DNA of 64,000 nucleotides from Pelagomonas calceolata (taxonomy: Eukaryota > Sar > Pelagophyceae > Pelagomonadales > Pelagomonadaceae). The stretch spans positions 310,001 through 374,000 of the forward strand of contig CAKKNE010000006.1 in the NCBI GenBank assembly GCA_918797485.1, read 5' to 3'. The translations under genes were made by a program, and so were the position numbers. The stretch's first letter is position 1. Each line of letters begins with the position of its first letter. A model generated the notes under the pieces. It did not search any database. It was not told the DNA's origin and saw only the letters and a list, made by a program, of their open reading frames with translations. Shown piece after piece: positions 1-63,831 of this stretch.

Positions 1-3000
1 CTCGCCCTCGGCTACCGGGCCTGGGCGGCGCACGTCACACGCCTCACGAAGAAGGAGGCCGCCGTCGTGCGTTTGACGCGGCTGGCCACCGGAACTCTCC
101 GGAAGTGGCGCCGCCGGGGCCTCGCGAAGGGTCTGCGGGCCTGGCGCGGCTTTGTGGCGGAGTGCACAGCACTCGAACGTAAATTCGCGACGGTCGTGCG
201 CGCGCTCCGGGCGGGGTTGCAGTGGTGGGCGACGGGTCGCTTGAAGGTAGCGTTGAGGCGGTGGCACGCCACTATCGCCTTCTTCGACGATCTCGAAAGG
301 TGCGTCCTGCGCATGTTGCGAAGGCGCCTCGCGGTCGGCTTCCAGACTTTGGTGTCCGTAGTGGGCCTCGCCACAAAGCGCCAACGGGCCATCCACCGGG
401 TCCTGCGATCAAAGAAGCGTAGTATTAGGCACATGCAGCATAGGAGACTAGGCCGGGCCCTGCGCGTTTTATGTCTCAACGGCTCGTCAACAAGTCAGAG
501 CTCCAAGGACAAGGGCACGGCCGTGGCTTTGCTCAAAAGGTACGCGCGGCGCTGGGAGGGCGGCCAGAAGCATTTGGCGGTGCGGATTTGGTGTAGAAAT
601 GCGGCCGCGCGAACGTCCAAGGGCGCGGCGGCGCTGCGGGCTCTTAACATAGGCCAACGGGCTCTGAGGAGGCTTCTTCGACTCCGTCTTTCAATGTCAA
701 TGAACGCGTGGCGTAGTAGAACGGTCAACGATCATCGGGCGATGGCCATCCTGGCCAAGGTCGCGCTGCGCTGGAGGGCCGGCGCCGTCAGCAGATCATA
801 TAGGAGGTGGGCGTTGACGGCGCGCCGGTTCACGGCGCGCAAGGTCGCCATGGTTCAGTTGGGGAGGGCCCTGCTGCGGTGCGGCGCCAGGCACCGGCGC
901 AATGGGCTCGGTGCTGTTCTGGTCGCGTGGCGCGCACTATGTGTGATGGAGTCCGACTCGGACAAGGACAAGCGCCACGCCATTTCTGTCTTAGCGCGGG
1001 GCGCTTTCAAGTCAAAACGCCTCGCGCTCATCCATGGCGTGCGGACGTGGCGCGCCCACGCTCTTATTATGAAAGACGACGCGGCGCGGGCGCGCATCCT
1101 GCACCTTTTATCAAATCGCTGCGGCCGCCGCGTTCTTCGTAGAGCCATCAACCAGTTGCGCCCTGTGTGGAAATCAACCAGTGTGTCAGGTGCTCATTTC
1201 TCGGCGATGACGCGGCCGTCCTGGCTCGGCCGATCGGTGAGCAACCGGCATCGCCACGCCATCGAGCAGGCGTCGCGTCGATGGCGTGGAAGACGACGCG
1301 ATGATTCAGCACGAACGCGCCGTAAATTTTGATTTCCCCACAGGTGGCGCCTGAAGCGCACCGCGCCCGCGAAGCGCGCGCTCAAGAGGCACGTCGTCGC
1401 CCGCGTCTCGGCCGTGTCCCGGCGCCAGCTCTTCAAGGCCTTCGTCTTCTGGCGGTCGAGCGCGCCGCGGGCCGCCGAGGACTTCTGGCACGCGAACGAG
1501 TACTTGAGAAGAGCCGTGCGCTCGCGGCGTCCCGCGAGGTGCCTTCTTTTGGCCGTTGCCGTGCGTACGGATGCTCTGCTTTCGCCGCGTGCGCATGACA
1601 TCCACCGCCCCGCGTCGAGGGCCGCGCCAGCAGTCCGAGACGACCCACGCGCGCCGCCACTGCGACGCACGCCCTCGACGCGACCCACACGCGCCGTCGC
1701 CGCCGCCGCGAGCCACGCACACGGTCGCCGCCGCCGCGAGACCCGCCAATAACCCCACAAAAACGCGCAGGTCACCTGCGTCGAGGTCCGCAACGACCCT
1801 TCATTAAAAGCTGCGCTGCGATCCTGCGTGCTGCGTTCGGCGAAGACCGAGCGAGGGTGGTTGCAATTGCAGGCGTGCTGCTTCGATGGGGATGGCGTCT
1901 ACCTCGGCCCGTCGCTCGCAATATACAGAGACGGTTTGACAGATGAAGTGCTGTTAGATGGCGGCGCGGCACAAGTGACCGGAGAGGGCTTTTGTGTGGA
2001 CCGCGTCGGGCGGTCGTCGCTACCGTATGTGATTTCGGAGGGCGACGCCTGGGTGGCTGCTGTGGATGCAAGTCTAGCGCACCACGCCCTCATATTGAGA
2101 AGACTCCACGGCGACCCGCGCTGCCGGCGGCCCTCGCAACGGCGCGCGGCGATCAAAAACTTCCGCGAATCGAAACCCGCGTTCCCCCCGCCCCAATTTG
2201 AAGAAAGAGCGTTAATACCCTCCAACCCTCAAGTCGCGTCGCCTCGGGAAGTCGCGGCGGGCGTCTTGGAAGTGGCCCAGACTGGATCTGAAACGAGACG
2301 CACGGGCCTCCACTCGTTAATTGTGAAGTCGGGCTATTTACTGTATGAGCGGCTGCCGGGCGTCTGGCGGCGGCGGTTCCTCAAGCTACGGGCGGTGAGT
2401 TTCGACGTAGCTTCAAGATACGCGGGGCCTTGCGTCGAGTCTTCGTTAGATGAAGACTCCGAGCCTCTGGCGACGTTTCCGCTGGATAGCACGAGGGTGA
2501 GATCCGGGGCGTCGGAGGCGGGCCTGCACCCCATGCTCTTCGTGGATAGTGCGTCGGGCGCGTCGGAGCGCTTCGCCGCGGCGACGCGGAGAGATAGAGA
2601 CGCGTGGCTGGCCGCCGTCGAGGCCGCGCGCGAGCAGCATTCTACCGTGATCGATTCGTTACGAGGTGAGGTGAGGAGGCCGCCGCCGCCGCCTGAAATA
2701 CCAGAAGAGCCGGAGCGGACGCACCTCTTCCGCTTTGGGGTCAACGCCTCCAAAAAGTTCCAGTGCGTCCACTGCTCGTTTCGCGGGACTTATGAGGAAG
2801 TGGCAGCACATGAAAGGAGCTGCCCCGACGGTGGGATAAAGGGCATCCTGAGCTGCTCTTCTCGAAACTGGAATCAAGCAAGGTACGAGCTGAAAGGTGG
2901 CGCTTTGGTGGGCGACGGCCAGCGTTTTGAGTTAAGGGGGGCTTCTGTGCGCTCTGCCGAGCCGTGCGGCTTCGACGTCGAGGCGCCGGGGCGGGGACCG

Positions 3001-3087: not shown

Positions 3088-3163
3088 TTTATTGTGTTTT
3101 GAATTATCTCCAGCACGCGTTCCCTGGGCTTCGTGCGCCGCGCTTGCGTTTTTGAGGCTGCTT

Positions 3164-3187
3164 GCTAGTGTCTTACAGGCCGCTAGC
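3164..3187 (+). promoter_or_regulatory. Recurrent GCTAG palindrome, copy 1
   Basis: GCTAG arm, TGTCTTACAGG core, CTAGC arm. This is the one copy not near a recognised start codon; it lies 77 bp after the stop at 3087. Confidence 0.6.
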
Positions 3188-3330
3188 CTATCGATCCGGT
3201 TTTTTCACAAGCGCGCGGCGCTGATCGCGAGCGTCGGCGGCGTCGACAAGCTCGACTCCTTCTGGGGTCAGCGGGACAAGACGCGGCAGCAACGCGACCG
3301 CGAGAGCCGCGCGGCGAACTTCGACCGCCG

Positions 3331-6332: not shown

Positions 6333-7345
6333 ATGGGCAAGAAGGATCGGCTATGTCCGAACCCCGTGATGGCCCACAAAAAAAAGATGAAGCAGAAGGA
6401 GATCAAGCGCAACAAGCGTCACAAGGTCGAGCGCCAGGAGGCGCAGGAGCTCCTCCGCGACCCCGACGCGCTCGCCGCCGAGATCGCGCGCGTCGCCGAG
6501 GACGCGACGCATAGCTCCGAGGCTCGTGCGAAACTGAAGGCGCTCCAGGCGCACCAGAAGGTGCTGGCGAAGAGCATCGCGGCGGACGCTAAGCGGCGTC
6601 CCGAAGAGCTTGGCTTCAAGGGAGCGGGCTCTCCTCGCGGCCCGCCGCCGCGAGGCGCTGCAGGCCCTCGCGGCTCCCAGGCTCGGCCTCCTCCGCCACC
6701 ACCCCGGGGCGCACCGCCCGCGCACGCGTTCGTGGGCCGAGGTCCGCCGTCGGCGCCTGTGTGGAAATCAAGCACTGCGGGAGACCTTCGTCTGAAGTTT
6801 GAACTCCGCACAGGCCGCCGCCGCCGCGAGGGGCGCCGCCGCCGCCCCGAGGCGCGCCGCCCGCTCACGCGTTCGTGAGCCGCGGGCCGCCCCCTCCGCC
6901 TCCTCGCGCACCGTTCCCGCGAGGCGCGGCGCCGAGCGCTGGCTTCTGCCCGCCGCTGCCACCGGGCCCGCCGCCGCGCGTGCGCCGCCGCCCGCCGCCG
7001 CCGCCCGGGAAGCCTCCTCCCCACGCTTTCCCACGACTGCCGGAGAAGCGCGCCGCCGCCGACGCGGGCCCAGTGGGGCCGGCGCGGCCGAAGGGACCCA
7101 AGGTGCTGGGCCGCGCGGACGGTGTTGAGGACCTCGTGCGCGACCAAACCTTTGTGCCGGCGAACATCCGCGGTGTCCGGCGCCGGCCAGCGGCGCCCAA
7201 GCGGAAGCGACCCGTGAGCGCGACGACGACGTCGGCGCCGGCGCAGATCCACGCGGCGCCCACGCCCGCGCCCGCGCCCGCGGACGCCGCCTTCTCCGCG
7301 TTCATGGACGAGATGCGGGAGCTGCCGGAGCCGGGTAAGTCTTGA
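6333..7345 (+). CDS. WBP11: WBP11-like splicing factor
   Basis: Exons 6333-6748 and 6814-7345, 315 residues. The N-terminus (MGKKDRLCPNPVMAHKKKMKQ) and its basic RNKRHKVERQEAQELLRDP helix resemble the Wbp11/NpwBP N-terminal domain. A long Pro-rich stretch follows. The C-terminus carries VRDQTFVPANIRGVRRR, the family's FVP-x-x-RxRR motif. In other eukaryotes it binds WW proteins (PQBP1) and acts in spliceosome activation in the nucleus. It is shorter than animal WBP11 (about 640). A 57-bp introner splits the Pro-rich region; removing 6749-6813 joins CC to G and keeps the frame. Confidence 0.75.
6749..6821 (+). mobile_element. Introner 2, very short (element 6757-6813)
   Basis: Only 57 bp: CTGTGTGGAAATCAA, a short unique middle, then TTTGAACTCCGCACAG. 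Duplications GTCGGCGC and GCCGCCGC (6 of 8). The inner hairpin has been lost. Confidence 0.75.
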
Positions 7346-11589: not shown

Positions 11590-11590
11590 T

Positions 11591-13083
11591 TCATTTCTTA
11601 TCCTTACCCCTATCAGTAGTCAGGCGCGACTTGATTCCCGCCTGCGTCAGCAGGTCGGGGATGGCGGACTTGATCGCCGCCGTGCCGCCCTCGAGCTGTC
11701 CCTCCTGGACGCCCGCGTCCCACTGCGCGGCCGTCCAGCCGTTCGCCGCGAGCGAGGCAATATGCTCCTCGTCGGTGATGGCGTTCTCCATCTGGTACTT
11801 GGCCAGGAACTCGCGTTCCGCGGAGTGGACGACGCCGTCGGCCAGAGCCACGCGCATAATTAATTCATACATCGTGACCCGCACGTCCTCCTGCATGATC
11901 GTAGGTAACTTGCGGGGCGCCACGGGACCGCCGGTCGCCTTCCGCGCGGCCTCCTTCGCCGCGTAGTCGTACTGGCCTCGTCGTCGCAGGCCCTCGACGA
12001 GGTCGAAGTACAACACGTTCAGTATGGCCGCCTCGATCGCGGGATTCTCGTCCATCGCACTGCGTAAAGCACCGTACGAGAACTCGACGACGCGCGCCGG
12101 CTCGGCAGCTAGGGCGGTGGAGGGGTAGGGCTGGGCCCGAACCGATGGGTCGAGCAGTGCCGTCCCACCAATCACGCACCCTCGTATCGGCACCTGGAAG
12201 CTATTGACCGTGCTGTCCTGGGGCCGCGCGATGTCCCGCTTCGCTCGGTATCTGTATAGTCTTTTGAGGGAGCCGTCGGGCGCGGTCTCGTAGGAGTCCA
12301 CAGATCCCGTCGCAACTAAGACAATCCGGTCCATGGACTCGCCGGCCCGCACCAGCGCCTCGCCCGGCTGGAGCGTGCGCCAATTCGACTTGCGCATCAT
12401 CGCCTGTGTGGAAATCAACCAGTGAGTCAGGTTAACTCGACCGAGTGGAGCGAGCAGCGCCTCACGCCGACCGCGACACACCAAAAATTGAAGGGCGCTT
12501 GAACTTTGCTTGCCACACAGATCATCGCGAAGAAGTTGTCCGGACTGACTCCATAGGGCCTCAGAGCCGACTCGTACAAGGCCATCTCCTCCTTCGTGAA
12601 GTAGAGCTCCTTCTTCTCCCCTAAGAACAGTAGGGGCGCCATGCCGAGCAAGCAGCCCACCGTAATTCCAATAATCGTCGCCCAGGTCTTCACGATTCGG
12701 CAGGATCGTAAGGCGAGCTGTTCGAGGGACAAAGCCTTGGTTTTCGGTTTTCCGATGATTTTTTCCGAATACCTATCGATGACGTCGCCGGCGCCGATGC
12801 CCACGACGTCTGACAGTAGATTGCCGAAGCCGGCTGCTGCCAAGGTAGAGATACCTAATGTAACACCTATGGACTTGTCGATGGCGTCGCCCGCCAGGAT
12901 CATGATGACATTATCGGCAAACCCGAACCCCACGAAGGGCACGCCGTTCGCCAGCGCGAGGCGCCAGAGCTGCGCTCGGCTCGGCGGCTCGACCTTCGCG
13001 CTCGCCTTTTGCTGTCTTGCTGCTACGGCGGGCGGCGCCGTAGATAAAGAACGGCGCGCGGTGAGGGCGGCGCGGCGCCACAT
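11591..13083 (-). CDS. TMEM65: TMEM65-like membrane protein fused to a cyclic-nucleotide-binding-like domain
   Basis: Exons 13083-12529 and 12403-11591, 455 residues. Residues 1-30 (MWRRAALTARRSLSTAP...) look like a mitochondrial presequence. Residues 45-150 match TMEM65: GFGFADNVIMILAGDAIDKS, GISTLAAAGFGNLLSDVVG, and a third membrane span ATIIGITVGCLLGMAPLLFL. TMEM65 is an inner-mitochondrial-membrane protein linked to ion handling. Exon 2 encodes a cNMP-binding-like beta roll (LQPGEALVRAGESMDRIVLVATGSVDSYE) and a helical C-terminus. The introner sits exactly between the two modules. The GCTAG palindrome (13276) lies 193 bp upstream. Confidence 0.8.
12396..12528 (-). mobile_element. Introner 3 (element 12404-12520)
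   Basis: Ends CTGTGTGGAAATCAACCAGTG and GCCACACAG. Perfect 8-bp duplication ATCATCGC; in the gene's sense this is GCGATGAT, beginning GC. Predicted intron 12528-12404 (GC-AG), restoring ...FF|AMMRKSNW. Confidence 0.95.
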
Positions 13084-21456: not shown

Positions 21457-22648
<1,192 letters not shown>

Positions 22649-22905: not shown

Positions 22906-24631
22906 ATGGTAGCGGTCCTACGCCGGCCGACGCGCGAGCGCGACGCCGTCACGGATGCCGCAGTGGAAGAGCCTCCCAAGCCAGAGGCAGCAGCCGAGGA
23001 CTCCTTCGCCACGGCCAAGCACTCCATCTGCACGGCGCTCGGCGTCGTGATGGCCGTGCACTTTTACAGTGCTTACGTGCAAAATACGGCACTGATAGGT
23101 GCCGACGGATTGGTACCTTGTGCCGCGTACGTAAAAGAACGAGTAAAAACTGGAAGTTTTTGGACCTGGCCCTGCGTGTGGTGGTGGATAGAACCGACCG
23201 ACGCTAATTTAGATGCGGTGGCATTAACGGGCCTGGCGAACGCATTGCTACTAACAGTAGGAGCGCACTATTCACATCTCGTCGCGATCTGCTGGCTCTG
23301 CCACTCGTCAATCGTCAACGCCGCCGAGGCGTCGTCCTTCTATTCGTATGGATGGGAGACGCAGCTGCTCGAGACGGCTTTTCTGACTATTTTTTTATGT
23401 AGTCCGACCGACCGACGGGCGCCGCCGACGCGCATCGTGCTGTGGCTGTTTCGCTGGCTCGCGTTCCGGATATCGGTCGGCGCCGGCCTTATTAAAGTAA
23501 GGGGCGGCTCGTGCTGGGAGCGGAAGACCTGCCTCTGGTATCATTTCGAGACGCAGCCCATACCTTCTCCTCTGTCGTTCTTCTTCCACTTCCTCCCTAA
23601 AGCGATACTGTCGCGGGGCGTCGACATTGATTTAATCGTGCAGCTCTACGCGTCGTGGCTCGTCTTGGTGCCTTTACGAAACGTGCGGAGGGTAGCGGGC
23701 TACGCGCAGATCGCGTTCATGCTAAACATCGCGGCCTCGGGGAACTTCTCGGTCCTCAACCACCTCACGATCCTACCGTCCCTGGCCTGCCTCGACGATA
23801 AAGCTTGGCCGCGATGCTTGCGGCGAGCACCTACGAAGAAGCGGCGGAATTTAGGAAGACGTATGACGGACGTCGTGCTGCTGCTCGTAATAGCCTACCT
23901 GTCGCGGCCCGTCGTAGCCAACTTAGTATCAAAAAACCAGGTGATGAACACGAGCTTCGACCCCTTCAAGCTCGTCAACACCTACGGGGCCTTCGGGTCC
24001 GTCGGCGAGGGGCGCTACGAGCCCGTCGTCGCGCTGTCGGACGACGGCACGACGTGGCGCGAGGTCGACCTGCCCTGCAAGCCGACGGACGTCAGGAGAA
24101 GGCCGTGCTTCTCCGCGCCCTACCACCACCGCCTGGATTGGAATATTTGGTTCATCGGCTTCAAGCCGCATCGACCGGTGTGGAAATTAATCAGTGAGAA
24201 ACATTGCGTGGACCTTCATCGACGCCGTCACGGCGACAACGTCGCGTCGACGGCCTGGAAACTCCACGCCATGTGGGGCACCCGACATTTGATTTTCACA
24301 CAGGCATCGGCAGATGCTCGAGGGCCGCGAGCGCTGGCTCTACGCCTTCCTCGCGCAGCTGCTGCGCGACGGCGACGCGCCGGCGCGCCGGTTGGTGGAC
24401 GCGTCGTCGCGCGACGTCCGGGGTCGTATCGCGCGCGTCCATATGTACCGGTACCGCATGGCCGCGCCCCTCGCCCAAATCTTGGGAACGGCGCCCGCCG
24501 AGCGCGTCTGGTGGACGCGCGCGTTCGAGGAGGTCCTGATCCCGCCCGTCGTGCTCCGGGCCGACGGCAACCTCGCGTACTTCGAGGCGCCGCGGCCGCC
24601 GCCGGGCAATCGGTTCGTGGAGCGTATCTAG
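22906..24631 (+). CDS. LMF1: Lipase maturation factor family protein
   Basis: Exons 22906-24167 and 24304-24631, 529 residues, many membrane spans. Family signatures: YGWETQLLETAFLTIFL, FRWLAFRISVGAGLIKVRGGSCW, WYHFETQPIPSPLSFFFH, and in exon 2 YRYRMAAPLAQILG...VWWTRAFEEVLIPP. In animals LMF1 is an ER protein needed for folding of dimeric lipases; LMF-family proteins of algae are of unknown client. An introner (24176-24303) splits the last quarter. The donor predicted from the target duplication is GC (CC|GCATCGAC). ATG 22906 is the first in frame. Confidence 0.85.
24168..24311 (+). mobile_element. Introner 4 (element 24176-24303)
   Basis: Ends CGGTGTGGAAATTAATCAGTG and TTTGATTTTCACACAG. Duplications GCATCGAC and GCATCGGC (7 of 8). 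Predicted intron 24168-24303, GC-AG, phase 2. Confidence 0.9.
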
Positions 24632-24649: not shown

Positions 24650-27447
24650 TTAGGTGAGCCCGGCAAAATCGGGGGCGGGGTGCACGGGCACGGCCGCGGC
24701 AGAGGTCTTCTCGTCCTCCTTGACGTCGACGAAAGCCACGGCCATGAGGCACAAATCGTTGACGACGGAGTCGACGATGAAGGTGACGAGGAAGACCATG
24801 CTGCGCTTGCGCCAAAAGTTCGGCCTAACATAACCGTAGATCATCGGGAAAGGTAGGGTAAAGAACGTCGACATGATGGCCACCACCGATGCCACCACGA
24901 CGCGCGCGACCGTCCGCTTCTGCTGGCGCAAGATGTCGCGCGTCTCGTCGTCGGCGTCCGCCCCCCCCTCGCCTCGCAGGCTCGCGCTCGCGCGGCGCAT
25001 CGCCGCCACGAAGACGTAGACGAGCGCGAGAGTCACGAACATGTGCCCGCCTCCGAAAAAGATCATCGTGCCGTATATGATGATACTGCCCCAGGGATGC
25101 GGCGGCGGGTCGGGGATGCGGAAATTCGGGTCGTCCACGTCGTACTCGACATAGTTCATGACCGCCAAGTCGTACATGAAATAGAATAACACGATGAGCC
25201 CGACGCACTCGAGCGCGATGAAAACGCGGATCGCCGCCATCAGCCGCGTGTCGGTCCGCCCGGCCAGACCTCGTAGCATCGCCGCCCGGAGGTAGAGGAT
25301 GGCCTGGAGTAGCACGTTCGTGAACATGCCGCCCCCGTAGAGGGCCCCCCACCGGTGCACGACGGCCCACCTGCGCGGCCAAGGCCGTTATCGCGAAGGC
25401 CGTCGTCGCGCGGCGGGCTGCTGAGATGACCGGCCTTCAATCGACGCGGCTGTTCCGCGCGATGGCGCCCTCCCGTTCGTGGCTGAAGGGAGTCCGACGG
25501 AATTTGATGTGCGACGCGGCGGCGTACCGCGCGGTCCCGTCGTCGATGAAGAGCTGCTTCCGGTCGACGCCGTTGACCACGGCGCAGGCCGCGTACGTCG
25601 CGTCCGGGTACCCCGGCGTCCACCTGTGTGGAAATCAAAATTTTACGGCGCGTTCCTGAATCGCCGCCTCGTCCTCCACGCCATCGACGCGACGCCTGCT
25701 CGACGGCGTGGCGGTGTGAATTCCTCACGTGCACCCGACGCACTGATTGATTTCCACACAGGCGTCCACCACGCGTCGCAGTTTTGCTCCTCCTCCGCGA
25801 CGTCATCATACCAGACGCAATCATCACCCGGTTTCTCCCTCATTATCGCGCTTCGTTCTTTTAAAAAGAAAACTGAAAGCCACCATGGGAAGACCTGGCG
25901 CCACCCGGAGTCGCCGAGCCAGGCCGTGGGGCCCTGAAAGGCGGCCCCCTTCCTTGCCCATCGCAGCGGGCGCAAAGACTGGGCACCCGCGTCGCACGCG
26001 GGGCTCGTCGCCGTTCCGTACCCGCAGCTCGCGTCCGCCTCCACGCCGGCGAGCGCGCAAAAATCCAGACCCGTGTAGTCGACGCGGTTGACGACCAGGA
26101 TGTTGTGGTGCTTGCAGCGGACGTCGACGAAGGTCGCGAAGACGACGAAGTTGACGGCGAGCTGGCAGTAGAAGTAGGCGCCGACGGCCGCGACGTACCA
26201 GCGGTAGGGCCCGCCGGCGAAGAACTCGGGCTGCCTGCGTTTTCGTATGCGTCGTGACTCTCGCTTCGGCGGCGTGGCGACGCGGCCGCCTCGACGCCGT
26301 CGAGGCGACGACCGGAAGGCGTCGACGCGCAGATGACACAAAGGGACGCCGCGCCTGCTTGATGGCGTCGCTGTAGAGGCGGAAGAAGAGCAGGCACCCG
26401 ATTCCGGACACAACGGCAGTCAAAAAATGCATCGCATACAGCGCCTCGAAGTTGTCGTCGTCCTCGTTGGCGCCCCACTCCGGCGCGCATGGAATGCCCA
26501 GGGCCACGAGCATGCTATCCACGGGCGCTCCGGCCACCCGCATCTTGGGGCAGCGCCCTGCTTTACATTCCTTCGCCATGTGCGCGAGCAGGTGGCGGTG
26601 ATTGCACGTGCGCCCGACGCCCGGGAAGTCAATTCCCGTGTCGTTCCTGAAAATAACGGAGAACGCCTGCTCGAAGAGCGCGCAGTCGTAGGAGTAGGCC
26701 CACGCGGCCACGCGGTCCGCGTAGGTCGTGTTGCCGAGTTTGATAGCTTCCTGCGGCGGCTGGAACGGCGCGTCGGCCCCCCGGAACGGGGCCGACGGGT
26801 TGTTGCCTGTGTGGAGATCAACCAGTGCCTCGGGTGCACCCGACCATTCTTCACTAAGTCATTTCTCGGCGATGATGCGGCCGTGCTGGCTCCGTCGAGC
26901 GGTGAGGAACCGGCATCGCCACGCCGTCGAGCAGGCGTCGCGTCGATGGCGTGGAGGTCGACGCGACGATTCATCACGAACGCTCCGTAAAATTTGATTT
27001 CCACACAGGTTGTTGCCGTCGGGCCCCTCGTAGGGCCCCCTCCACCACTTCGCCCGCAGGCCCAGCGCGTCCATGTCGAGCGACGGCGACCACGCCCCGT
27101 CTAGCCTGGGATCGCGCGTCGACCTCGAGGCCTTCTGGTAGTAGCGCTCGTAGCCGCGGACCATGCCGCAGTTGTCGCGGGACCTGTGTGGAAATCAAAA
27201 TTTCACGGCGCGTTCGTGCTGAATCGTCGCGTCGTCCTCCACGCCATCGACGCGGTGCACCCGACGCACTGGTTGATTTCCACACAGCGCGGGACGGGAC
27301 GACGCCGTACAGGAAGGGCCAGAGCAGGGCAAGCAATATGAGCGCCGTCGGGAGGCCGTAGCCCACCGTTTGTGGTATTTCGCCGCGCTCGCGGAACCTT
27401 CTCCACCTCTTGCGCAGCGCGTCGGCCGCCTGCTCGCCTCCCCCCAT
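24650..27447 (-). CDS. Polytopic membrane protein with several introner introns, unknown
   Basis: Proposed exons: 27447-27296, 27183-27017, 26806-26359, 26234-25770, 25623 to about 25450, and about 25370 to 24650. The first ATG in frame is 27447 (MGGGEQAADALRKRW). A membrane span follows at once (GLPTALILLALLWPFLYGVV), then an extracytoplasmic Cys-containing region (TCNHRHLLAHMAKECKAG), two spans (FLTAVVSGIGCLLFFRLY; WYVAAVGAYFYCQLAVNFVVF), another Cys-containing loop, and about five C-terminal spans. The junction between the fifth and sixth exons is unresolved: the fifth frame meets a stop at 25437, while the sixth lacks an early ATG. No family was recognised. It is convergent with the LMF gene (18 bp). 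Confidence 0.55.
25616..25769 (-). mobile_element. Introner 5 (element 25624-25761)
   Basis: Ends CTGTGTGGAAATCAAAATTT and TTGATTTCCACACAG. Perfect duplication GCGTCCAC (sense GTGGACGC, a GT donor). Removing 25769-25624 gives DAWWTPGYPDATY. The inner hairpin is present. Confidence 0.95.
26235..26358 (-). mobile_element. Probable old introner in the polytopic gene
   Basis: The sense intron begins GCAGGCGC and ends ACGCAG, followed by GCAGCCCG (first four bases and one other shared). Splicing AA|GCAGG...CAG|GCAG restores DAIKQPEFFAGG in frame. The terminal repeats are largely eroded. Confidence 0.55.
26799..27016 (-). mobile_element. Introner 6 (element 26807-27008), longest copy
   Basis: 202 bp. 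Ends CTGTGTGGAGATCAACCAGTG and TTTGATTTCCACACAG. Perfect duplication GTTGTTGC (sense GCAACAAC, a GC donor). Removing 27016-26807 gives PEGPDGNNPSAPF-type continuity. About 85% like introner 1 along its length by eye. Confidence 0.95.
27176..27295 (-). mobile_element. Introner 7 (element 27184-27287)
   Basis: Ends CTGTGTGGAAATCAAAATTT and TTGATTTCCACACAG. Perfect duplication CGCGGGAC (sense GTCCCGCG, a GT donor). Removing 27295-27184 gives VVPSRDNCGM. Confidence 0.95.
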
Positions 27448-47975: not shown

Positions 47976-48001
47976 AACGGGGAGCATTATAAGACACTTA
48001 C

Positions 48002-49911
48002 TCATGACATGAACTTGCGAGCTCGTTCGGCCGCCTCCATCGCCGGCGACCTCGCCTTCACTATCCTATCCCCGTCCAAATCGCGCCAGCGGAAGTAGTC
48101 AGCGCTCGCATCATCGACCCAACCGACGCGCACCGAACCCCGCACGAGCTCCACGGACGTCGGGTGCTGCAGGACCACGCACTCCACTAATTCTCTATTC
48201 ACATCAAACGACAATTTCTCCAATGCCGACCGCGGCAGGGGGCAGTCCCGCAGCAAGAGCATGCGGTGCGTGTACATGTAGGCGAAGACGAGCATCAATT
48301 CGACGTCCGCGTCCGGATCATTGAGCGGTTCATCATAATACATGTCGTGCACGGCCACGACGTATTCGTCGAAGACTGTGGCAGCATCATCAGCCGCTAT
48401 CCTAACTCTAGGCATGACGCACCCGTCGATATCATCCACACCGGTCCTGTCTAGCACAAAAGGTTCTTGACCGGGCACCGTGACCGTGGCCTTCCGCCAG
48501 AAGACGCGTTTATGACCAGGAGGTACTGGTGGTAAATTGTTTCTAGGATGGAGTTGACCGTCTTCCTGATCTGCGTCGTCGACGCTCCACAAGACATCAT
48601 TACATAACTTCTCCTCCGTTTCTTTTGTGGTACGCGTTCCTAACCCACCAATCTCGGGCTCTGCCGGCTCAGCAACGGGCGGTTCCGCGACGCGGGGCCG
48701 CTTCGGCGCCTTGGGCGCGGCCTCCACCTCTTTGTGAACGTCGAACTCCTCCTCCTTATCATCGGAAATCTTCGGCCGATCCACGACTTGCAATTCACTC
48801 CTCTTGTAGGTGCCGCACCACCGCCCGCCGTCCGTGAACTTGCGGGCGCCGGCGAACTTGACCTCGTACCTCTCATTACCTTTGGCCTTCGTCACGATGC
48901 ACTCGGAACCCTCGACCTGCGTGGACATCGACCAGTGAGCCTCCACGCCATCGAGCAAACGTCGCGTCGATGGCATGGGACGCAGGAGCGGACGACGCAC
49001 TCCGTCCCGACGAAGGGATCGAAGCCGCCGCGGTACGTTATTAACAATTCCTCGGCCTTTTTCTTTCTAGTATCACTCGACGTACTCGTGGAAAAGTGCT
49101 CGAGGCAGTCTTCTGCGGTTTTATCTTCCTCAATAGTCCCGTGCCGCAGACAGGCCTCGAGCAACTGCAACAATGAGTCGAAGAACTTCGGGCTATCCAA
49201 TCCACTCCTTTTAGTTCTCTGAGACAGCTCGAGACACGCCGCGCGCCAGCAGCCGCTCCTCACGTCGTTTGATAATGATGGGGTGTTCTTGAGCGCCTCG
49301 CTCGCGCGCACCAATGTATGTATAGGGACGCCCTTCGCAACTTTTGTAATGATGTCCAACAGAGCCTCGCGGTCGTGCTTTTGTAAAGAGGCTTCCTGCC
49401 TCGCGGGCTCGGCGGACGGCGCCTGGGCAACCTTCGAGACGCGTGTTAATCCACCTCTTAAGTGTCGCGCCGCCTTCCGCAGGATCTCGTCGTCCTCGAA
49501 GGTGACCGAGGCCTCGCGCTGCAGCGGGGGCTTCGGCACGGGGGCCGTCCGCGGCTGGGCCTGCTTCCAGCGCGGCATCGGTTTCTCCTTCTCCTTCGTG
49601 AGGTCGACGACCTCCGGGGGTTTCTGCGCTCTCGGCGAGACGGGTGGCGCCGTGCTATTGTAGTGCGCGCACCACTTGGCGATGAGCGCCGAGGCCGCGT
49701 CGGCGACGGCTCGCGTCTCGTGCTTGCGGACCCTTGCTAGCTTTTTGGCTACCAACTTGATAATGTCTTTGATGGGGACCGGCAGCGCGTCTAATCGATT
49801 GAGCACGGCGAGGCAGGCTCCGTCGGAGGCGCCGTCGAGCATATCTACGAGCTTGACGCGGTCGTCCATGTCGTCGATTTGGAGTGGTCCATCGATATAC
49901 ATCAAGGCCAT
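48002..49911 (-). CDS. Nuclear-looking protein with a chromo/Tudor-like module, unknown
   Basis: Exons 49911-48997 and 48916-48002, 609 residues. The N-terminal 300 residues resemble a small helical repeat: a TFIIS/LEDGF-like region (LNRLDALPVPIKDIIKLV, LGHL-type helices absent) followed by a basic Pro-rich linker. Exon 2 starts with SECIVTKAKGNERYEVKFAG and GRWCGTYKRSELQVVDRP, which looks like a small beta barrel (chromo, Tudor or Agenet type). An acidic linker and a compact C-terminal domain follow. Upstream of 49911 the frame stays open but without ATG. The intron (48996-48917) is an 80-nt decayed introner retaining the inner hairpin. Confidence 0.6.
48917..48996 (-). mobile_element. Shrunken introner (80 nt)
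   Basis: Plus-strand left end CTGCGTGGACATCGACCAGTG and inner hairpin CCACGCCATCGA with TCGATGGCATGG. Sense flanks GTCGTCCG and GTCGAGGG share five of eight bases. It keeps the frame (GTEC|VEGSEC). Confidence 0.75.
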
Positions 49912-56987: not shown

Positions 56988-57792
56988 TGGAGTATCTTTC
57001 TTTTTGCTTCCCTTCCCCCGTGTTCCCGGTCGAACCGCGGGGAAGGGGTGCGGCTGCGTCGTGGCGTAGGGGTTTGATTTTTCTCTACGGTGTTCTTATG
57101 AGCTAGGCCTGGGGAGGGGTCCAGGCGCGAGCGCAGTAGGCCGAAGCTATGCCTCAGGCGGAGGCGGAGGCGGAGGGCCCGAGGCCGCGCGGGCGGCTTT
57201 CAAGACAAACGATGCCTTGCGCTCGATGCTGCTGGGTCGCAAGCGAAGCGCTCACTTTTCTTGGGAAATTGGACGTACGACACCTTCTTGCTGTAGAGCC
57301 CCTCCACTAATACTCGGACGTGGTCGGCGGCCACCTTTACTACTTGACACTTTCTTAAGTGCCCACAAGCAAGAGCGACCTTCTCGCACGCAGATTCGAA
57401 GCCCTCGTCGGGCAAGGCATCACGTCGTCGTCCGCATCGGCCGCGGTGATGTCGCCGGCGAGGAGGCGGTCGACTCCATTGTCTGATGCGGACGACATGA
57501 TAGCTCCTGATCGCCCAGTAGCCGCTCTCAGACGCTCGCAGAACAGAGGTCTCGCGACGACTGCAGCCTCTCAATGTTCAGGGCTCTCCCAGCGAGGTGC
57601 ACACCTCAGAGCGTTCGATCCGGCCGTGACGCGTATGAAACGTGCCGCTTAGTCAATGCCTACGCACAAACTGTCGCAGAGACGAGGCTGTCGGATCTCA
57701 CCGTGAAACCTTGATGGGAAACCCGTTTTTTGTTGTCCTGATATTATAACCCCATCGACGAACGCCTGACTAACAGAACTAGCCCCCCAACT
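56988..57792. other. Region between USO1 and the glycosyltransferase-like pair
   Basis: No confident gene. On the minus strand an ATG at 57498 opens MSSASDNGVDRLLAGDI..., and a different frame of the same strand (57450-57200) continues plausibly (ESACEKVALACGHLRKC, GLYSKKVSYVQFPKKSERF). The frames do not connect by any visible intron, so this may be a gene remnant. Confidence 0.4.
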
Positions 57793-59911
57793 CTAGTCAA
57801 TCGTCTCCTCAAAAGCCTCAAGCGCCCCCTTTGCACTCGTCGCCGCCGTGTCCGGAAACCGCCGCGTCGTCCCGACACGCGCGGGAAACCCCATCGCGCT
57901 CTCGTTCAAATACGCGCCCGACCCCGGCGGCAGCCCGAACCGTCCGTCGAAGCAGCCGCCCAACGGGAACCGGAGCGCCGCGTCCCAGTACGGCGCCCAC
58001 TCCGCGGCGGGCCGCTTGCCGTCCATGGACGTGAACTCGGGCCAGTGCGCGTCCATGTCCGACGCGAGCTTGTACTGGTGCAGGTACCAGCGCCTGTGCA
58101 TAAATCAAATCCTCGGCCGCGTCTCCGCAACCGCTGGATCATGGCCTCCACGCCATCGACGCGACGCCTGCTCGACGGCGTGTGGAGGTGCTGGTTCCTC
58201 ACCGCTCGACGGAGCCAGCACGGCCGCGTTCTCGTGCATCCGACTCACTGGTTGATTTATGCACGGACCAGCGCGCGAGGCACCGCTCGGCGGGCGCCGT
58301 CCGCGGCTGCGCCGCGCGCAGCGCCTCGAGCCGCGCGAAGTGCCCGCGGAGATTCTTTCGCGTGATGTTGCGGCCGAACCGGTCCGTGTAGTACAGGATC
58401 CACTCGCGCGTCTCCTCGTCGCGGCGCACGCCCTGCTTCGCGAACCCGGCCTGCGCCTCGCGCTCGTAGGTCACTTTGTAGGCGAGCGCCGACGTTTTCG
58501 CCCGGCCGGACCGGTGGTCGATGGGGTCGACGATTTGCACGTACCGCTCTAATTTCCTGCACAAATCAACCAGTGAGTCGGGCGTACCCGATAATCTTCG
58601 CAAAGTTGCGCGGTCAGAGAGGTGTCGCGTCGATGGCGTGCAGCGAAGCGCCGCGGAATTTGATTTATGCACTGCTACTTGCTCCGACTCGATCAACGTC
58701 TTCAGGTCGGGGTTCGAGGCCAGCAGCTCCGCCTCGAAGCCGCGGACGCGCTTCAGCCAGTGCACGAGCGCGGGCCAGACCATGCCGTACATCGTGTACT
58801 TCGTCGTCAGCCGCGCAAAGTCGCGGAGGTGCGGCCACTCGAAGACGACGGCGTCGGCGAGGGGCCGCGACACGAGGCTGAACGTGTCGTCGTAGTGGCA
58901 GTACCGCCGCAGGCCCAGGACGAAGGGCTTCGCTGATGCGGGCACCGCCGCGAGGGCCGTCACCAACGAGTCAAGACACAACATCGCGTCGGGCTCGACG
59001 CGCAGGACGTACTCGGCCCGCGGCGCCGACCGCAGCGCGACCCAGAACGCCGCCGTCACGAGGTCCCGCCAGTACTTGCGCGGCATCATCTGCGCGCAGC
59101 GCTGGGACCGGATGCGGATGTCGCCGCAGTCCGCAATGGATCGTAGCCGCGGCGCCTGTGCACAAATCAAATAAAATATCGCCCGCCTTCGTGCTGAATC
59201 ATGACCTCCACGCCATCGACGCGACGTCTGCGCGAGGACGGGTCTCTCACCGCTCGATTCAGTCAGCACCGCGGCATCGTCACAGAGAAACGTTTCTGGA
59301 GGCGTATATCTGCCCCCGACTTGCCGATTGATTTCCACACAGCTCGATGCCTCGGTCGCGTACTCGGACACGTCCGTGCCGGCGACGGCCGCCATGTCCG
59401 CGTTCTCGACGTAGCGCAGGCGCGTCGTGTCGAGGCGCTTCTTGTTGAGGGCGTGGTCGTGCCGGTCGGCGACGAAGATGACGGCCGCGCGGCCTGTTTT
59501 TACTGCCTCAGTCTGCTGGAGCCGGCGATCCACGACCGCCATCAGATCCGTCTCCGACACGACGAGCAGCGCCACGACGCATTTCGTGGCGCTGAGCACG
59601 GGCAACGGCGCGGCGGCGGCGCGCTTTGCTAGCACGCCGGCGCGTAACCGCACCGCTTGTCGTCGATCGGGAGTGGTAGTGACGCGCTGTGCCAGCATGC
59701 CGCCGCGCGCCCGCACCGCGCCCCGTCGATCGGGCGCCGCGGCCGGAGCTGCAGTCGTCGGCACTTGAGTAGGTCCCACGGGCGTCGGCGCGCGCGTCGG
59801 CGCCGGCATCCGTCGGCTGCGATGCTGCTGCTGCCGGCGCAGGAACTTGTCGATGCTGCTGCCCTTTTTGGCCGTGCAGAGGTGGATGCAGAGGAGCAGT
59901 CCCAGCATCAT
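57793..59911 (-). CDS. Glycosyltransferase-like protein, copy A, with three introners
   Basis: Exons 59911-59351, 59155-58683, 58556-58275 and 58093-57793, 538 residues. A signal or anchor (MMLGLLLCIHLCTA) is followed by a Thr/Pro-rich stem and a lumenal domain beginning KCVVALLVVSETDL. The segment EYVLRVEPDAMLCLDSLVTAL and later VLGLRRYCHYDD resemble GT31-type galactosyltransferases (KTDDDVFVN region), but the acidic DxD is replaced by EPDA, so activity is uncertain. It is a tandem copy of the gene at 60125-61672; the proteins are nearly identical over most of their length. The three introners are absent from the sister copy. The palindrome at 60054 is 143 bp upstream. Confidence 0.75.
58086..58274 (-). 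mobile_element. Introner 8 (element 58094-58266)
   Basis: Variant ends CTGTGCATAAATCAA and TTGATTTATGCACGG. Perfect duplication ACCAGCGC (sense GCGCTGGT, a GC donor). Intron 58274-58094 restores CLARWYLHQYK as in the sister gene. Confidence 0.95.
58549..58682 (-). mobile_element. Introner 9 (element 58557-58674)
   Basis: Ends CTGCACAAATCAACCAGTG and TTTGATTTATGCACTG. Duplications CTAATTTC and CTACTTGC (6 of 8). In the sense strand the downstream copy reads GAAATTAG, the upstream copy GCAAGTAG, that is, changed into a GC-donor consensus. Intron 58682-58557 restores SEKLERYV as in the sister gene. Confidence 0.9.
59148..59350 (-). mobile_element. Introner 10 (element 59156-59342)
   Basis: Mixed ends CTGTGCACAAATCAA and TTGATTTCCACACAG. 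Duplications CGCGGCGC and CTCGATGC (5 of 8). Sense donor GCATCG; intron 59350-59156 restores ATEAPRLR as in the sister gene. Confidence 0.9.
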
Positions 59912-60053
59912 AATTGCAGATCAATTGTTTTTATCGATTGCGGGGCATCGTGGGCTGCCCTTCTTGCATCAGTGTGGCGTGCGTGGAGCCCAAAGCAAAC
60001 GCTGCCCGAAGCTGTCGGCTTTGAAACGCCGCGGCGCCGGCTGCCTGCTGGTT

Positions 60054-60077
60054 GCTAGTATCTTACAGGCCGCTAGC
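60054..60077 (+). promoter_or_regulatory. Recurrent GCTAG palindrome, copy 12
   Basis: GCTAG, TATCTTACAGGCCG, CTAGC. It is 143 bp upstream of the copy A ATG and between the two glycosyltransferase-like genes. Confidence 0.75.
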
Positions 60078-60124
60078 CCGGGCTGCCCCGCGCAAATGTA
60101 GCTTAAAACTTTAGCCCCCCGACC

Positions 60125-61672
60125 CTAGTCAATCGTCTCCTCAAAAGCCTCAAGCGCGGCCGCCATACTCGTCGCGGCCGTGTCCGGAAACCGCCGCGTC
60201 GTCCCGACTTTCAAAGGGAACCCCATCGCGCTCGCGTTCAGGTACGCGCCGACCCCGGGCTTCCCTTGGAACCGCGCGTCGAAGCAGCCGCCGAGCGGGA
60301 GGCGGCGCGCCGCGTCCCAGTACGGCGCCCAGTCCGCGGCGGGCCGCCTGCCGTCCATGGACGTGAACTCGGGCCAGTGCGCGTCCATGCCCGCCGCGAC
60401 CTTGTACTGGTGCAGGTACCAGCGCGCGAGGCACCGTTCGGCGGGCGCCGTCCGCGGCTGCGCCGCGCGCAGCGCCTCGAGCCGCGCGAAGCGCTGGTTC
60501 GGGGGGAACTTCTTCCGCGTGACGTTGCGGCCGAACCGGTCCGTGTAGTACAGGATCCACTCGCGCGTCTCCTCGTCAAATCGCACGCCCTTCTTCGCGA
60601 ACCCGGCCTGCGCCTCGCGCTCGTAGGTCTTTTTGTACATTGCCGCCGACGTTCTGGGATTACGGCCGGTGTGGTGGTCGATGGGGTCGATGATTTGCAC
60701 GTACCGCTCCAATTTCTCCGACTGGATCAACGTCTTCAGGTCGGGGTTCGAGGCCAGCAGCTCCGCCTCGAAGCCGCGGACGCGCCTCAGCCAGTGCACG
60801 AGCGCGGGCCAGACCATGCCGTACATCGTGTACTTCGTCGTCAGCCGCGCAAAGTCGCGCAGGTGCGGCCACTCAAAGACGACGGCGTCGGCGAGGGGCC
60901 GCGACACGAGGCTGAACGTGTCGTCGTAGTGGCAGAACCGCCGCAGGCCCAGGACGAAGGGCTTCGCTGATGCGGGCACCGCCGCGAGGGCCGTCACCAA
61001 CGAGTCAAGACACAACACCGCGTCGGGCTCGACGCGCAGGACGTACTCGGCCCGCGGCGCCGACCGCAGCGCGACCCAGAACGCCGCCGTCACGAGGTCC
61101 CGCCAGTACTTCCGCGGCATCATCTGCGCGCACCGCACGGACCGGATGCGGATGTCGCCGCAGTCCGCGATCTCGCGCAGCCGCGGCGCCTCGGTCGCGT
61201 ACTCGGACACGTCCGCGCCGGCGACGGCCGCCATGTCCGCGTTCTCGACGTAGCGCAGGCGCGTCGTGTCGAGGCGCTTCTTGTTGAGGGCGTGGTCGTG
61301 CCGGTCGGCGACGAAGATGACGGCCGCGCGGCCGTCGCGCACCGCGGCGGTCTGCTGGAGCCGCCGGTCGACGACCGCCATCAGATCCGTCTCCGACACG
61401 ACGAGCAGCGCCACGACGCATTTCGTGGCACTGAGCACGGGCAACGGCGCGGCGGCGGCGCGCCGTGCGAGCACGCGCGCGCGGGCCCGCACGACGCCCC
61501 GCCGATCGGGCGCAGCGACGGGCGCCGCCGTCGTCGTCGGCGCGCGCGTCGGTGCCGGCGTCCGTCGGCCGCGATGCTGCTGCTGCCGGCGCCAGAACTT
61601 GTCGCGGCTGCTGCCCTTTTCGGCTCCTGTGGTGCTGCAGAGGTGGATGCATAGGAGTGCTGTCAATTTCAT
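60125..61672 (-). CDS. Glycosyltransferase-like protein, copy B, intronless
   Basis: 515 residues, one exon. Leader MKLTALLCIHLCSTTGA, stem rich in TRAPT, then the same lumenal domain as copy A: KCVVALLVVSETDLMAVV, MMPRKYWRDLVTAAFWVAL, EYVLRVEPDAVLCLDSL, FCHYDDTFSLVSRPLADAV, WILYYTDRFGRNVTRK, and an identical end ALEAFEETID. GT31-like fold is inferred from the YVLRVEPDA and following segments; the usual DDD is missing. Compared with copy A it has a shorter stem and lacks all three introners, so it records the pre-insertion sequence. Confidence 0.75.
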   Translation of the reverse strand: MKLTALLCIHLCSTTGAEKGSSRDKFWRRQQQHRGRRTPAPTRAPTTTAAPVAAPDRRGVVRARARVLARRAAAAPLPVLSATKCVVALLVVSETDLMAVVDRRLQQTAAVRDGRAAVIFVADRHDHALNKKRLDTTRLRYVENADMAAVAGADVSEYATEAPRLREIADCGDIRIRSVRCAQMMPRKYWRDLVTAAFWVALRSAPRAEYVLRVEPDAVLCLDSLVTALAAVPASAKPFVLGLRRFCHYDDTFSLVSRPLADAVVFEWPHLRDFARLTTKYTMYGMVWPALVHWLRRVRGFEAELLASNPDLKTLIQSEKLERYVQIIDPIDHHTGRNPRTSAAMYKKTYEREAQAGFAKKGVRFDEETREWILYYTDRFGRNVTRKKFPPNQRFARLEALRAAQPRTAPAERCLARWYLHQYKVAAGMDAHWPEFTSMDGRRPAADWAPYWDAARRLPLGGCFDARFQGKPGVGAYLNASAMGFPLKVGTTRRFPDTAATSMAAALEAFEETID

Positions 61673-61919
61673 TAGTGGTGTCGAGCAGTTGTTTTTATCG
61701 ATTGCTGGGCATCGTGGGGCTGCCTCTTTTGCATCTGTATGGCCCGCAAAGGCTGCGGTTTCTTACGCGCGGGTTTTGTCCTACGCTATCCCTGGAGTTT
61801 TTGGATTGTTAGACCACTTCCGGGCAGGCCGGTACGCGATACTTCGCGAGGGTCGACGCCCCACTTCGTGGCGGGGGACCGGAGGAGACCTGGACGCCTC
61901 CGGTATTCGTGACGCGCGC

Positions 61920-63831
61920 CTAATACGCGGCGTCGGCCTTGGCCGATTCGGCCTCCTTGGCGAGGAAGTCGGTGTGTTCTTGGAAGGGCGCCTTGCTGAA
62001 GACCTAAGTAGAGAACGACGAGTGAGTGAAATTTTCGACTCTCGACGGCCCTCGGCGTCCATAAAATGAAATGCTGACTCTGGCACTCGCCGTAGGCTTC
62101 CATAACTCGGGCGACAAGTAGCCGTACGAGGCCGACACCGCGTTGAAAACAGCGGTAATAAAGTTGCCCGTCGTGCGCGAGTGGCCGCGCGTCGTGGAGT
62201 AGCAGTCCTGCGTGCAAAGGAGTGAGTTGGCGTTTCGCGTCATGGATGCGGCGGCCGCTAAATAGCTGGCCCGCCCCCGCCGCGACTCGAAGGCCTCATT
62301 AGTTGTTGGACGCAGCTGCTGACCTCGAGGCCAGCCATGGCGAGGATCTTCTTAGAGGCCGGGGCGGCGACGAGGCCCGTGCCGCGCGGCGCCGGGATAA
62401 GACGCACGCTAACGCTACCACAGGTACCGGAGAGCTTCATGGGGATCGTGTGAGGAAGCCCGGAATTTTTACTGTGTAGATCAACCAGTGAGCGATGCAA
62501 CGTTTACAGCCCCGCGGAGACTCTCTCGAAGTGGCAGACGCGTCGATTCTCGTTTTCTGACGCTGTCGCGGACCCCCAGTAGCCGCGGCGGATCGGCACG
62601 AGGTGCATCTTGGCCATGATAAGAGCGCCTCTAATGGCCGTAGCGACCTGTGCGCAAATCAATCAGTGAGTCGGGTGCGCGTCGATGGCGTGGAGGTCAT
62701 AATTCAGCAGTGGACGTGCCGCGACAATTTGATTTAAGCGCAGGTAGCGACCTCCGAGGAGCACTTCTTGCCGAGGCCGATGTGGCCGTCGAAGTCGCCG
62801 ACGGCGACGTAGGCCTCTGCGTGGAGTAAAAACGGTGAGTTTCGGCGAAGGCTGACGTTTACGTCAACATCGACGTTGAAGGCGAGGACGCTGGCAAATA
62901 CTGAATCTAGTTCTCTGGCCAGCCGACGACTGCTTCTGAACGGGCTTGATGGTCATCACCTCGTCTTTGAGCTTTCCAGCGGTCGGCGGGAAGAAGTGGT
63001 CCACCTGCGAGAGGAATACGAGCGGTGACCGCGCGCTTAGCTGGGGCTGGGGGGCGGTTAAACCGTCTACGCAAAGGTGCGTCGACGTTGCGTAGATCGA
63101 AGGCGCCTATCTCGGCGCCGAGACGGCACAATCTGGTGCTCCTTGATCGGCATCGAGTGAAGGAAGATTTCCTGTGCGAAAAAACGGGTCGCGAAAACGC
63201 TCCGCGACGCCTAGACTCTCTCATGATCACGAAGACGGCGTCGAGGCGACGTGGTCTCGTGAAGACGCCATCGCCGCGCCGCCCCGGCGAGTTAAAAATT
63301 CATTTTCTGCTCCGGTGCTGACCTCGAGCGAGCGGATTCTGCCCTCCTTCACGAGGCGGCCGAGCTTGGTGACGGGGATCTGTGTGGAAATCAACCGGTT
63401 AGCGTCACGTCATTTTGGCGTGGCGGTCTACGCGTCTATTCAGAAGGCGCGATGAAAAGATTATCCGCACTGCGTTTTGCCCATTCGTCCTTATCGTCGC
63501 CCCCGCGCCTGAGTATATCGACCAGTGAGTTCGCTGCGCCATTGTGTCGATGTCGGCGAAAAAACGCAACCGTATCTGGAAAAACGCGGCCGTTTCTGGG
63601 AAAACGCAGCCACTTGGATACTTTTCGACGCAGCGGTGGTATAGCTTGCTCGATAAGGCGCTCTGCGCCCACTGGAAGCATTGTAGTGAAGGCACCTTCG
63701 ATTTAAGCACTGCGGATTTACCCTCTGCCACGTCCGCGGCCGCGGCCGCGGCCCCGGCCGTCGCGGCCGCGGCCGAAGCCGCCGCGCCCGCCGCGCCCTT
63801 CGCCTCTACCTTCTCCAGGAGGTCCGCCCAT
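61920..63831 (-). CDS. RPS2: Ribosomal protein uS5 (RPS2), ten exons
   Basis: Exons 63831-63722, 63508-63481, 63379-63323, 63171-63130, 63004-62902, 62816-62752, 62647-62574, 62471-62324, 62207-62091 and 62003-61920; 275 residues. RG-rich N-terminus ([15 protein letters not shown]), then [121 protein letters not shown] and [17 protein letters not shown]. All junctions were set by matching the conserved family sequence. Introns are 85-213 nt. Introns 2 (GCAAAA) and 9 (GCGAGT) have GC donors; intron 6 is a fresh introner, and introns 1, 2 and 7 carry introner ends without a readable duplication. Confidence 0.9.
62472..62573 (-). mobile_element. Probable old introner forming uS5 intron 7
   Basis: Plus-strand left end CTGTGTAGATCAACCAGTGAG is clear. 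The other end is eroded and there is no matching duplication. Donor GTCCGC, acceptor ACACAG. Confidence 0.6.
62640..62751 (-). mobile_element. Introner 11 (element 62648-62743)
   Basis: 96 bp. Ends CTGTGCGCAAATCAATCAGTG and TTTGATTTAAGCGCAG. Perfect duplication GTAGCGAC (sense GTCGCTAC, a GT donor). Removing 62751-62648 restores the conserved SSEVATAIRG of uS5 exactly. Confidence 0.95.
63380..63480 (-). mobile_element. Probable old introner forming uS5 intron 2 (GC-AG)
   Basis: Plus-strand left end CTGTGTGGAAATCAACCGGTT is intact; the far end reads CCGCACTG. The flanking 8-mers do not match. Donor GCAAAA after TGG; splicing gives KDEW|IPVTKLG. Confidence 0.65.
63509..63721 (-). mobile_element. 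Probable old introner forming uS5 intron 1
   Basis: Plus-strand left end CTGAGTATATCGACCAGTGAG is an altered introner end; the other end reads TTTAAGCACTG. Donor GTAAAT, acceptor ACTCAG. Confidence 0.5.

What the first reader, a model, noticed from the sequence alone, without database searches (positions are those of the whole stretch)
1155..62751. A dense, recently active introner family interrupts at least nine genes
At least eleven elements (57-202 bp) share 15-bp ends (CTGTGTGGAAATCAA or variants) and 8-bp flanking duplications, six of them perfect: 12404-12520, 25624-25761, 26807-27008, 27184-27287, 58094-58266, 62648-62743. One end continues CCAGTGAGTCGGGTG, the other AATTTTACGGCGCG, so orientation can be read; six clear copies have the first type at the 5' splice side and four the other, so they work as introns either way round. 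Introners are known from Micromonas and Aureococcus; the density and perfect duplications here imply recent activity.
Basis: partly seen in the sequence, partly recalled or inferred. Interest (0 to 1): 0.85.

Follow-up and report, generated by a model that had tools for sequence, protein, structure and literature searches.

The report
Jumping DNA that becomes new introns
A family of very short jumping DNA pieces has inserted itself into several genes of an unidentified nuclear genome, and its sequence design should let the cell cut each piece out of the messenger RNA as a brand-new intron; this is a known kind of event, seen unusually clearly here because a duplicated neighbouring gene still has the empty sites.

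Summary
Eleven well-formed elements (57-202 bp) share 15-bp inverted ends and 8-bp target duplications, six of them perfect. Four decayed copies could also be placed in genes. Nine genes are interrupted, and both element orientations occur. A tandem gene duplicate at 57.8-61.8 kb gives direct evidence of insertion: copy 1 carries three elements, and copy 2 has three clean empty sites with one 8-bp target each.

Best mechanism: non-autonomous DNA transposons that act as introns. The acceptor CAG is carried at the element ends, so orientation need not matter. The donor (GT or GC) is the first two bases of the upstream duplicate in 11 of 11, so removal of the element plus one duplicate leaves the mRNA unchanged. 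Doing this restores the paralogue's protein and a gapless uS5 ribosomal protein. Splicing is inferred; no RNA was available.

This is the introner mechanism I recall from Huff et al. 2016, so a new family of a known kind. It argues against the published 12-bp-adding mode as the main one here, although a second in-frame donor lies 12 nt downstream in every well-formed copy. 'Recently active' holds for part of the family. The host was not identified.

The parts
1155..1343 (+). Introner with donor-side duplicate (element 1163-1343; duplicates GTTGCGCC / GTGGCGCC) in an unnamed gene on +
6749..6813 (+). Short introner (element 6757-6813; duplicates GTCGGCGC / GCCGCCGC) in a WBP11-like gene
   Evidence: (the Pfam match lies in the upstream exon)
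12404..12528 (-). Introner (element 12404-12520; perfect duplicate GCGATGAT) in a TMEM65 + cyclic-nucleotide-binding gene, between the two domains
24168..24303 (+). Introner (element 24176-24303; duplicates GCATCGAC / GCATCGGC) in a lipase maturation factor (LMF1) gene
25624..25769 (-). Introner (element 25624-25761; perfect duplicate GTGGACGC) in an unnamed gene, apparently the same multi-membrane-span gene as the next two
26807..27016 (-). Longest introner (element 26807-27008; perfect duplicate GCAACAAC), same gene as the next
27184..27295 (-). Introner (element 27184-27287; perfect duplicate GTCCCGCG)
   Evidence: codon scores of the flanks are weak
58094..58274 (-). Introner (element 58094-58266; perfect duplicate GCGCTGGT) in tandem gene copy 1; empty site in copy 2 at about 60418-60425
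58557..58682 (-). Introner (element 58557-58674; duplicates GCAAGTAG / GAAATTAG) in tandem gene copy 1; empty site in copy 2
59156..59350 (-). Introner (element 59156-59342; duplicates GCATCGAG / GCGCCGCG) in tandem gene copy 1; empty site in copy 2
62648..62751 (-). Introner (element 62648-62743; perfect duplicate GTCGCTAC) in a uS5 (RPS2) ribosomal protein gene
29077..29131 (+). Decayed introner in an EF-hand-like gene; acceptor end recognisable, donor chosen among six open ones
48917..48996 (-). Decayed introner in an unnamed gene (50031 to 48005); donor chosen by eye
62472..62573 (-). Decayed introner in the uS5 gene; no recognisable duplicate; one of two open donors, chosen by uS5 alignment
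63380..63402 (-). Acceptor end of a further decayed copy just before the uS5 exon [15 protein letters not shown]
57796..59920 (-). Tandem gene copy 1, holding three introners; 541-residue ORF once they are removed
60125..61762 (-). Tandem gene copy 2, uninterrupted 545-residue ORF with the three empty sites

Best explanation
These are introners: miniature non-autonomous DNA transposons with about 15-bp inverted ends and 8-bp target duplications that become spliceosomal introns when they land in a gene. Each end, read outward, is close to TTGATTTCCACACAG, so either orientation can supply an acceptor. On insertion the 8-bp target is duplicated. Where the target begins with GT or GC on the coding strand, the upstream duplicate supplies the donor, and removal of exactly one duplicate plus the element leaves the mRNA unchanged. 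Shown by sequence: the ends, the duplications, the empty paralogous sites, frame restoration, the GY rule, both orientations. Inferred: that splicing occurs at these sites, that TTGAT is a branch site, and that a transposase encoded elsewhere moves the elements.
For: Ends and duplications far above chance. Three filled/empty pairs in tandem paralogues with a single 8-bp target at each empty site; exact removal of all three gives 541 residues against 545 in copy 2, with 450 identical of 507 aligned codons and the same C-terminus. Upstream duplicate begins GY in 11 of 11 (background 0.17 per site; 4e-9 if sites were independent and unselected) and the acceptor-side end is CAG in 11 of 11. The far end of the duplicate reads RC in only 5 of 11, so the donor end is in excess (Fisher p 0.006). 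Polarised by the empty sites, the donor-side duplicate changed while the exonic one did not: 59156 has 3 changes against 0, GC kept; 58557 has 2 changes private to the donor side, GAAATT to GCAAGT. Donor-side ends lost CAG in 3 of 11, acceptor-side ends in 0 of 11. Retention would shift the frame in 7 of 11 and meet a stop inside the intron in 2 more. uS5 aligns without gaps over 98 residues across two such introns.
Against: No RNA. Two copies (58557, 59156) are frame-preserving and stop-free if retained. The duplicate's far end also reads RC more often than background (5 of 11, p 0.028), so part of the GY rule is target preference. TTGAT is present at 10 of 11 acceptor-side and 9 of 11 donor-side ends, so the branch-site idea has no support from asymmetric conservation. 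Codon scores around 27184 are weak. Decayed copies lack recognisable duplicates, and their donors were chosen among alternatives. Beyond GY, most donors look unlike the usual consensus.
Confidence: 0.87

Rival explanations
1. The elements carry both splice sites (donor CTGT|GTGG inside the element end), so splicing leaves 4 + 8 = 12 extra bases and four extra residues, as reported for introners of an Aureococcus sp. MAG.
For: The geometry is the same as in PMC9860276 Fig. 2F legend. The inner donor is GY and leaves an open frame in 11 of 11 copies.
Against: It would put CVAT into the conserved EVATAIRG stretch of uS5 (142.9 against 150.9 bits) and lowers the LMF1_C score (42.8 against 47.2 bits). 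It does not explain GY at the duplicate start, nor the protection of GY there while other donor-side bases change.
Confidence: 0.08
2. Ordinary miniature transposons (MITEs) that are not spliced and simply disrupt genes or add peptide.
For: Ends and duplications are those of a MITE; two copies are open in frame.
Against: Nine of 11 would break the reading frame or hit a stop if kept, in genes such as uS5, LMF1 and WBP11-like that otherwise read well; several copies are old, and their genes are still open on both sides.
Confidence: 0.04
3. The empty sites of copy 2 reflect loss (gene conversion from an empty allele, or a spliced retrocopy) rather than gain in copy 1 after the duplication.
For: Identity between the copies is patchy, 0.86-0.97 by exon, as gene conversion can leave; exact splicing would also leave one duplicate, so a retrocopy cannot be excluded from the junctions.
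Against: Needs loss of three elements from one copy; the duplications show that copy 1's sites were insertion targets in any case.
Confidence: 0.15

Closest known systems
Introner elements of Micromonas pusilla and Aureococcus anophagefferens (Huff, Zilberman and Roy 2016; paper not held; recalled, plus second-hand passages in PMC10228655 and PMC7789003)
   Same: Short non-autonomous DNA transposons; A. anophagefferens introners with direct repeats and terminal inverted repeats; splice-site co-option and both orientations reported; one site carried and one co-opted (recalled).
   Different: Element sequence could not be compared. Six of 11 donors here are GC, whereas canonical splice motifs are stated for A. 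anophagefferens (PMC7789003 passage).
Aureococcus sp. introner family 4 (TARA_AOS_82_MAG_00129; Gozashti et al. 2022, PMC9860276, section 7 read and passages)
   Same: 8-bp duplication and a possible donor 4 bp inside the element.
   Different: There both splice sites are said to be carried and 12 bp added; here exact excision fits better. Sequence identity of the two families is untested.
Introner-sized introns of Pelagomonas calceolata (PMC9481584, passages seen)
   Same: Genome GC 63.6% against 63.2% in this window; intron-length peak near 210 bp ascribed to introner elements; the longest intron here is 210 bp.
   Different: No element sequence is given in the passages seen, so identity of host or family is untested.

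Membership tests
Introner (intron-generating transposon) | Similar sequences filling intron positions in unrelated genes | tested here: met
   11 related elements plus 4 decayed ones in nine genes; window only, no genome held
Introner (intron-generating transposon) | Transposon hallmarks: inverted ends and target duplication (in many families, not all) | tested here: met
Introner (intron-generating transposon) | Presence/absence at otherwise matching sites | tested here: met
   three filled/empty pairs between tandem paralogues; no other strain available
Introner (intron-generating transposon) | Removed from mRNA by splicing | not testable with these tools
   inferred from frame, paralogue and uS5 alignment; no RNA
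Co-opting introner (Huff type) | One splice site carried, the other taken from the duplicated target, exact excision | tested here: met
   GY at duplicate start 11 of 11, CAG at acceptor side 11 of 11, gapless uS5; sequence evidence only
12-bp-adding introner (Aureococcus sp., PMC9860276 Fig. 2F) | Four extra residues relative to an uninterrupted homologue | tested here: not met
   uS5 and LMF1_C score lower with the four residues; testable for these two genes only, and rests on homology, not RNA
hAT, P or another 8-bp-duplication transposon superfamily | Superfamily end motif and matching transposase | tested here: inconclusive
   8-bp duplication met; no transposase family among the ORFs scanned with Pfam; end motifs compared only by recall

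The most novel reading that the evidence does not exclude
Every well-formed copy offers two frame-compatible donors 12 nt apart: GY at the start of the duplicate and GY at position 5 of the element end. Because 8 + 4 = 12, either choice keeps the reading frame. The inner donor could be a built-in fallback that lets the element land where the target does not begin with GY (as at 58557, exonic duplicate GAAATTAG), adding four residues at first; selection then improves the outer donor (GAAATT to GCAAGT) and the protein returns to its original length. This would unite the two published splicing modes as two stages of one process.
Probability: 0.2. Interest if true: 0.7.

Novelty: new member of a known kind. 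Interest (0 to 1): 0.52.

Why it matters
How new introns arise is a long-standing question, and introners are a leading answer. This window gathers natural controls in one place: three filled and empty site pairs in tandem paralogues, insertions in a conserved ribosomal protein that tell exact excision from the 12-bp mode, and one duplicate that appears to have moved from a poor donor (GAAATT) towards consensus (GCAAGT) after insertion. It makes the two published splicing modes directly comparable by RNA sequencing.

Tried and rejected
Genome-wide copy number: no genome is held for the window, so density is known for 64 kb only. Relatives elsewhere: the element end plus CAGTG and the internal 19-mer gave 0 hits in viral contigs. 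TTGATTTCCACACAGGY gave 6 viral contigs and the internal 19-mer gave 42 prokaryotic contigs; none of these 48 loci has two ends of up to 3 mismatches within 600 bp, so I take them as chance. A distant BLAST of 26700-27300 against phages found nothing. The two 15-base end sequences appear in none of the papers searched.

Donor at the internal GTGAGT (after CTGTGTGGAAATCAACCA): rejected by arithmetic, not by script. It would leave 18 + 8 = 26 bases, which breaks the frame, and of the six copies with that end at the donor only 58094 has GTGAGT (alignment).

A scan for any exact GY-8-mer repeated after AG recovered the six perfect copies on -, three of which also show on + where their genes are not; the rest were repeats such as polyubiquitin and a few unexplained pairs. 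AG was not enriched over other preceding dinucleotides, so this scan is no general test, and it did not reveal a second family.

Single-end matches at 7758 and 46049 could not be placed in a gene model. The four placed decayed copies all keep the acceptor-side end, but I placed them through their acceptors, so that is not an independent test. tRNA and Rfam scans were empty. A first attempt at the acceptor of the second uS5 intron failed through a mistyped motif and was mended. The first 44 residues of the uS5 query are read-through of an upstream intron (seen later); they lie outside the aligned part.
Full report
What was checked. Flank mismatches sum to 9 of 88; the lowest of 20,000 re-pairings was 22. 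Six duplications are perfect, as claimed.

Direct evidence of insertion. Repeats pointed to a tandem gene duplication. Aligning 57600-60110 with 60060-62100 shows that copy 1 carries three elements, at 58094, 58557 and 59156, while copy 2 runs straight through with one copy of each 8-bp target. Removing the three elements and one duplicate each from copy 1 gives a 541-residue ORF; against the 545-residue ORF of copy 2 it has 450 identical residues in 507 aligned codons and the same C-terminus. Fourfold sites differ at 28 of 276, which bounds the age of the insertions if they followed the duplication. Identity by exon is patchy (0.86-0.97), so gene conversion may have acted.

Gene context. Joined ORFs and Pfam name the hit genes as WBP11-like (6757; the match lies in the upstream exon), TMEM65 plus cyclic-nucleotide-binding (12404, between the two domains), LMF1 (24176) and uS5 (62648), and EF-hand-like (29131; best EF-hand score 25.8 against a cut-off of 25.9). 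Unnamed are the gene at 1163, a multi-membrane-span gene (26807, 27184 and apparently 25624), the tandem gene (three elements) and the gene at 48917. That is nine genes. The uS5 gene holds 62648, the decayed 62472 and an acceptor end at 63380. Retention of the element would shift the frame in 7 of 11 and reach a stop inside the intron in 2 more (1163, 26807); for 58557 and 59156 retention would leave an open frame.

Where splicing most likely happens. In coding orientation the upstream duplicate begins GY in all eleven (GT 5, GC 6; background 0.17), and the element end facing the downstream exon reads CAG in all eleven. Removal from that GY to that CAG leaves the mRNA unchanged. The GY rule is partly target preference: the far end of the duplicate reads RC in 5 of 11, also above background (p 0.028). 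The excess at the donor end over the far end (11 against 5, Fisher p 0.006) is what splicing adds. The empty sites polarise later changes. In 59156 the donor-side duplicate changed at three of eight bases but kept GC, while the exonic duplicate did not change. In 58557 both duplicates share one difference from copy 2, and the donor-side duplicate alone changed at two further bases, GAAATT to GCAAGT, towards the usual donor consensus (consensus recalled). The donor-side element end lost CAG in 3 of 11, the acceptor-side end in none. TTGAT, my candidate branch site, does not show such a contrast (10 of 11 acceptor-side, 9 of 11 donor-side). These are small numbers.

Exact excision or 12 extra bases. 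Gozashti et al. 2022 (PMC9860276; section 7 read; passages) report introners of an Aureococcus sp. MAG that carry both splice sites and add 12 bp, 4 from the element and 8 from the duplicate. The elements here have that geometry. Both models keep frame, so frame cannot decide. Conserved proteins can: exact excision at 62648 and 62472 gives a gapless 98-residue alignment to solved uS5 (150.9 bits), whereas the 12-base version at 62648 must open a four-residue gap inside EVATAIRG (142.9 bits). LMF1_C drops from 47.2 to 42.8 bits. In the EF-hand-like gene, exact excision of the decayed copy at 29077-29131 gives a canonical-looking loop (DVDQKGAIDLHE; loop pattern recalled), though I chose among six open donors by that criterion. 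I conclude that exact excision is the main mode, while noting that the inner donor is GY and in frame in 11 of 11, so some use is possible.

Orientation. The four decayed copies have it at the acceptor side. Since both ends can carry CAG, orientation is not expected to matter. A review credits insertion in both orientations to Huff et al. 2016 (PMC10228655, passage), so this is not new. Huff et al. itself was not held; its one-site-carried, one-site-co-opted mechanism is recalled.

Activity. Six perfect duplications, paralogue-specific insertions and 91% identity over 152 bp between two copies (1194-1345 and 26859-27010) indicate fairly recent movement. Other copies are decayed. 'Recently active' is fair for part of the family; 'currently active' is not shown.

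Host. The window has 63.2% GC, no Rfam or tRNA hits and typical nuclear genes: NDC80, polyubiquitin, uS5, LMF1, an Arf-like GTPase. Pelagomonas calceolata has 63.6% GC and introner-length introns (PMC9481584, passages), so a pelagophyte is plausible but untested.

Verdict. A real introner family of the known co-opting kind, new as a family as far as could be checked (neither end sequence is in the papers searched), with unusually good internal controls. The most novel open point is the pair of frame-compatible donors.

Noticed in passing
58094-62743: A variant end type (CTGTGC.., giving GC at position 5) occurs in four of the eleven elements, all within 4.7 kb (58094, 58557, 62648 and one end of 59156), while copies at 1-27 kb mostly have CTGTGTGG; this suggests local hopping or a local subfamily.
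   Followed up: no
3157-3188, 15577-15608, 17726-17757, 60047-60078: A dispersed repeat of about 25-32 bp (GCTAGTGT.TTACAGGCCGCTAGC-like, with inverted ends), unrelated to the introner ends.
   Followed up: no
21464-22372: Polyubiquitin gene of four 228-bp units on the minus strand.
   Followed up: partly
61950-63880 (- strand): By eye, the uS5 gene has several further introns, one apparently GC-AG (ACG|GCGAGT...TTAG) and two that begin GTCAGCA; they could be older introners of other families.
   Followed up: partly
42487-42695 (- strand) and 3528-3718 (+ strand): Direct repeats of about 11-12 bases or more that begin GC, the second copy preceded by ACAG, about 180-210 nt apart; introner-like spacing without the family's ends.
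   Followed up: no
internal, e.g. 26919-26954: Several copies hold an inverted repeat (CCACGCCRTCGA...TCGATGGCGTGG); its 3' arm is the most conserved internal sequence.
   Followed up: no
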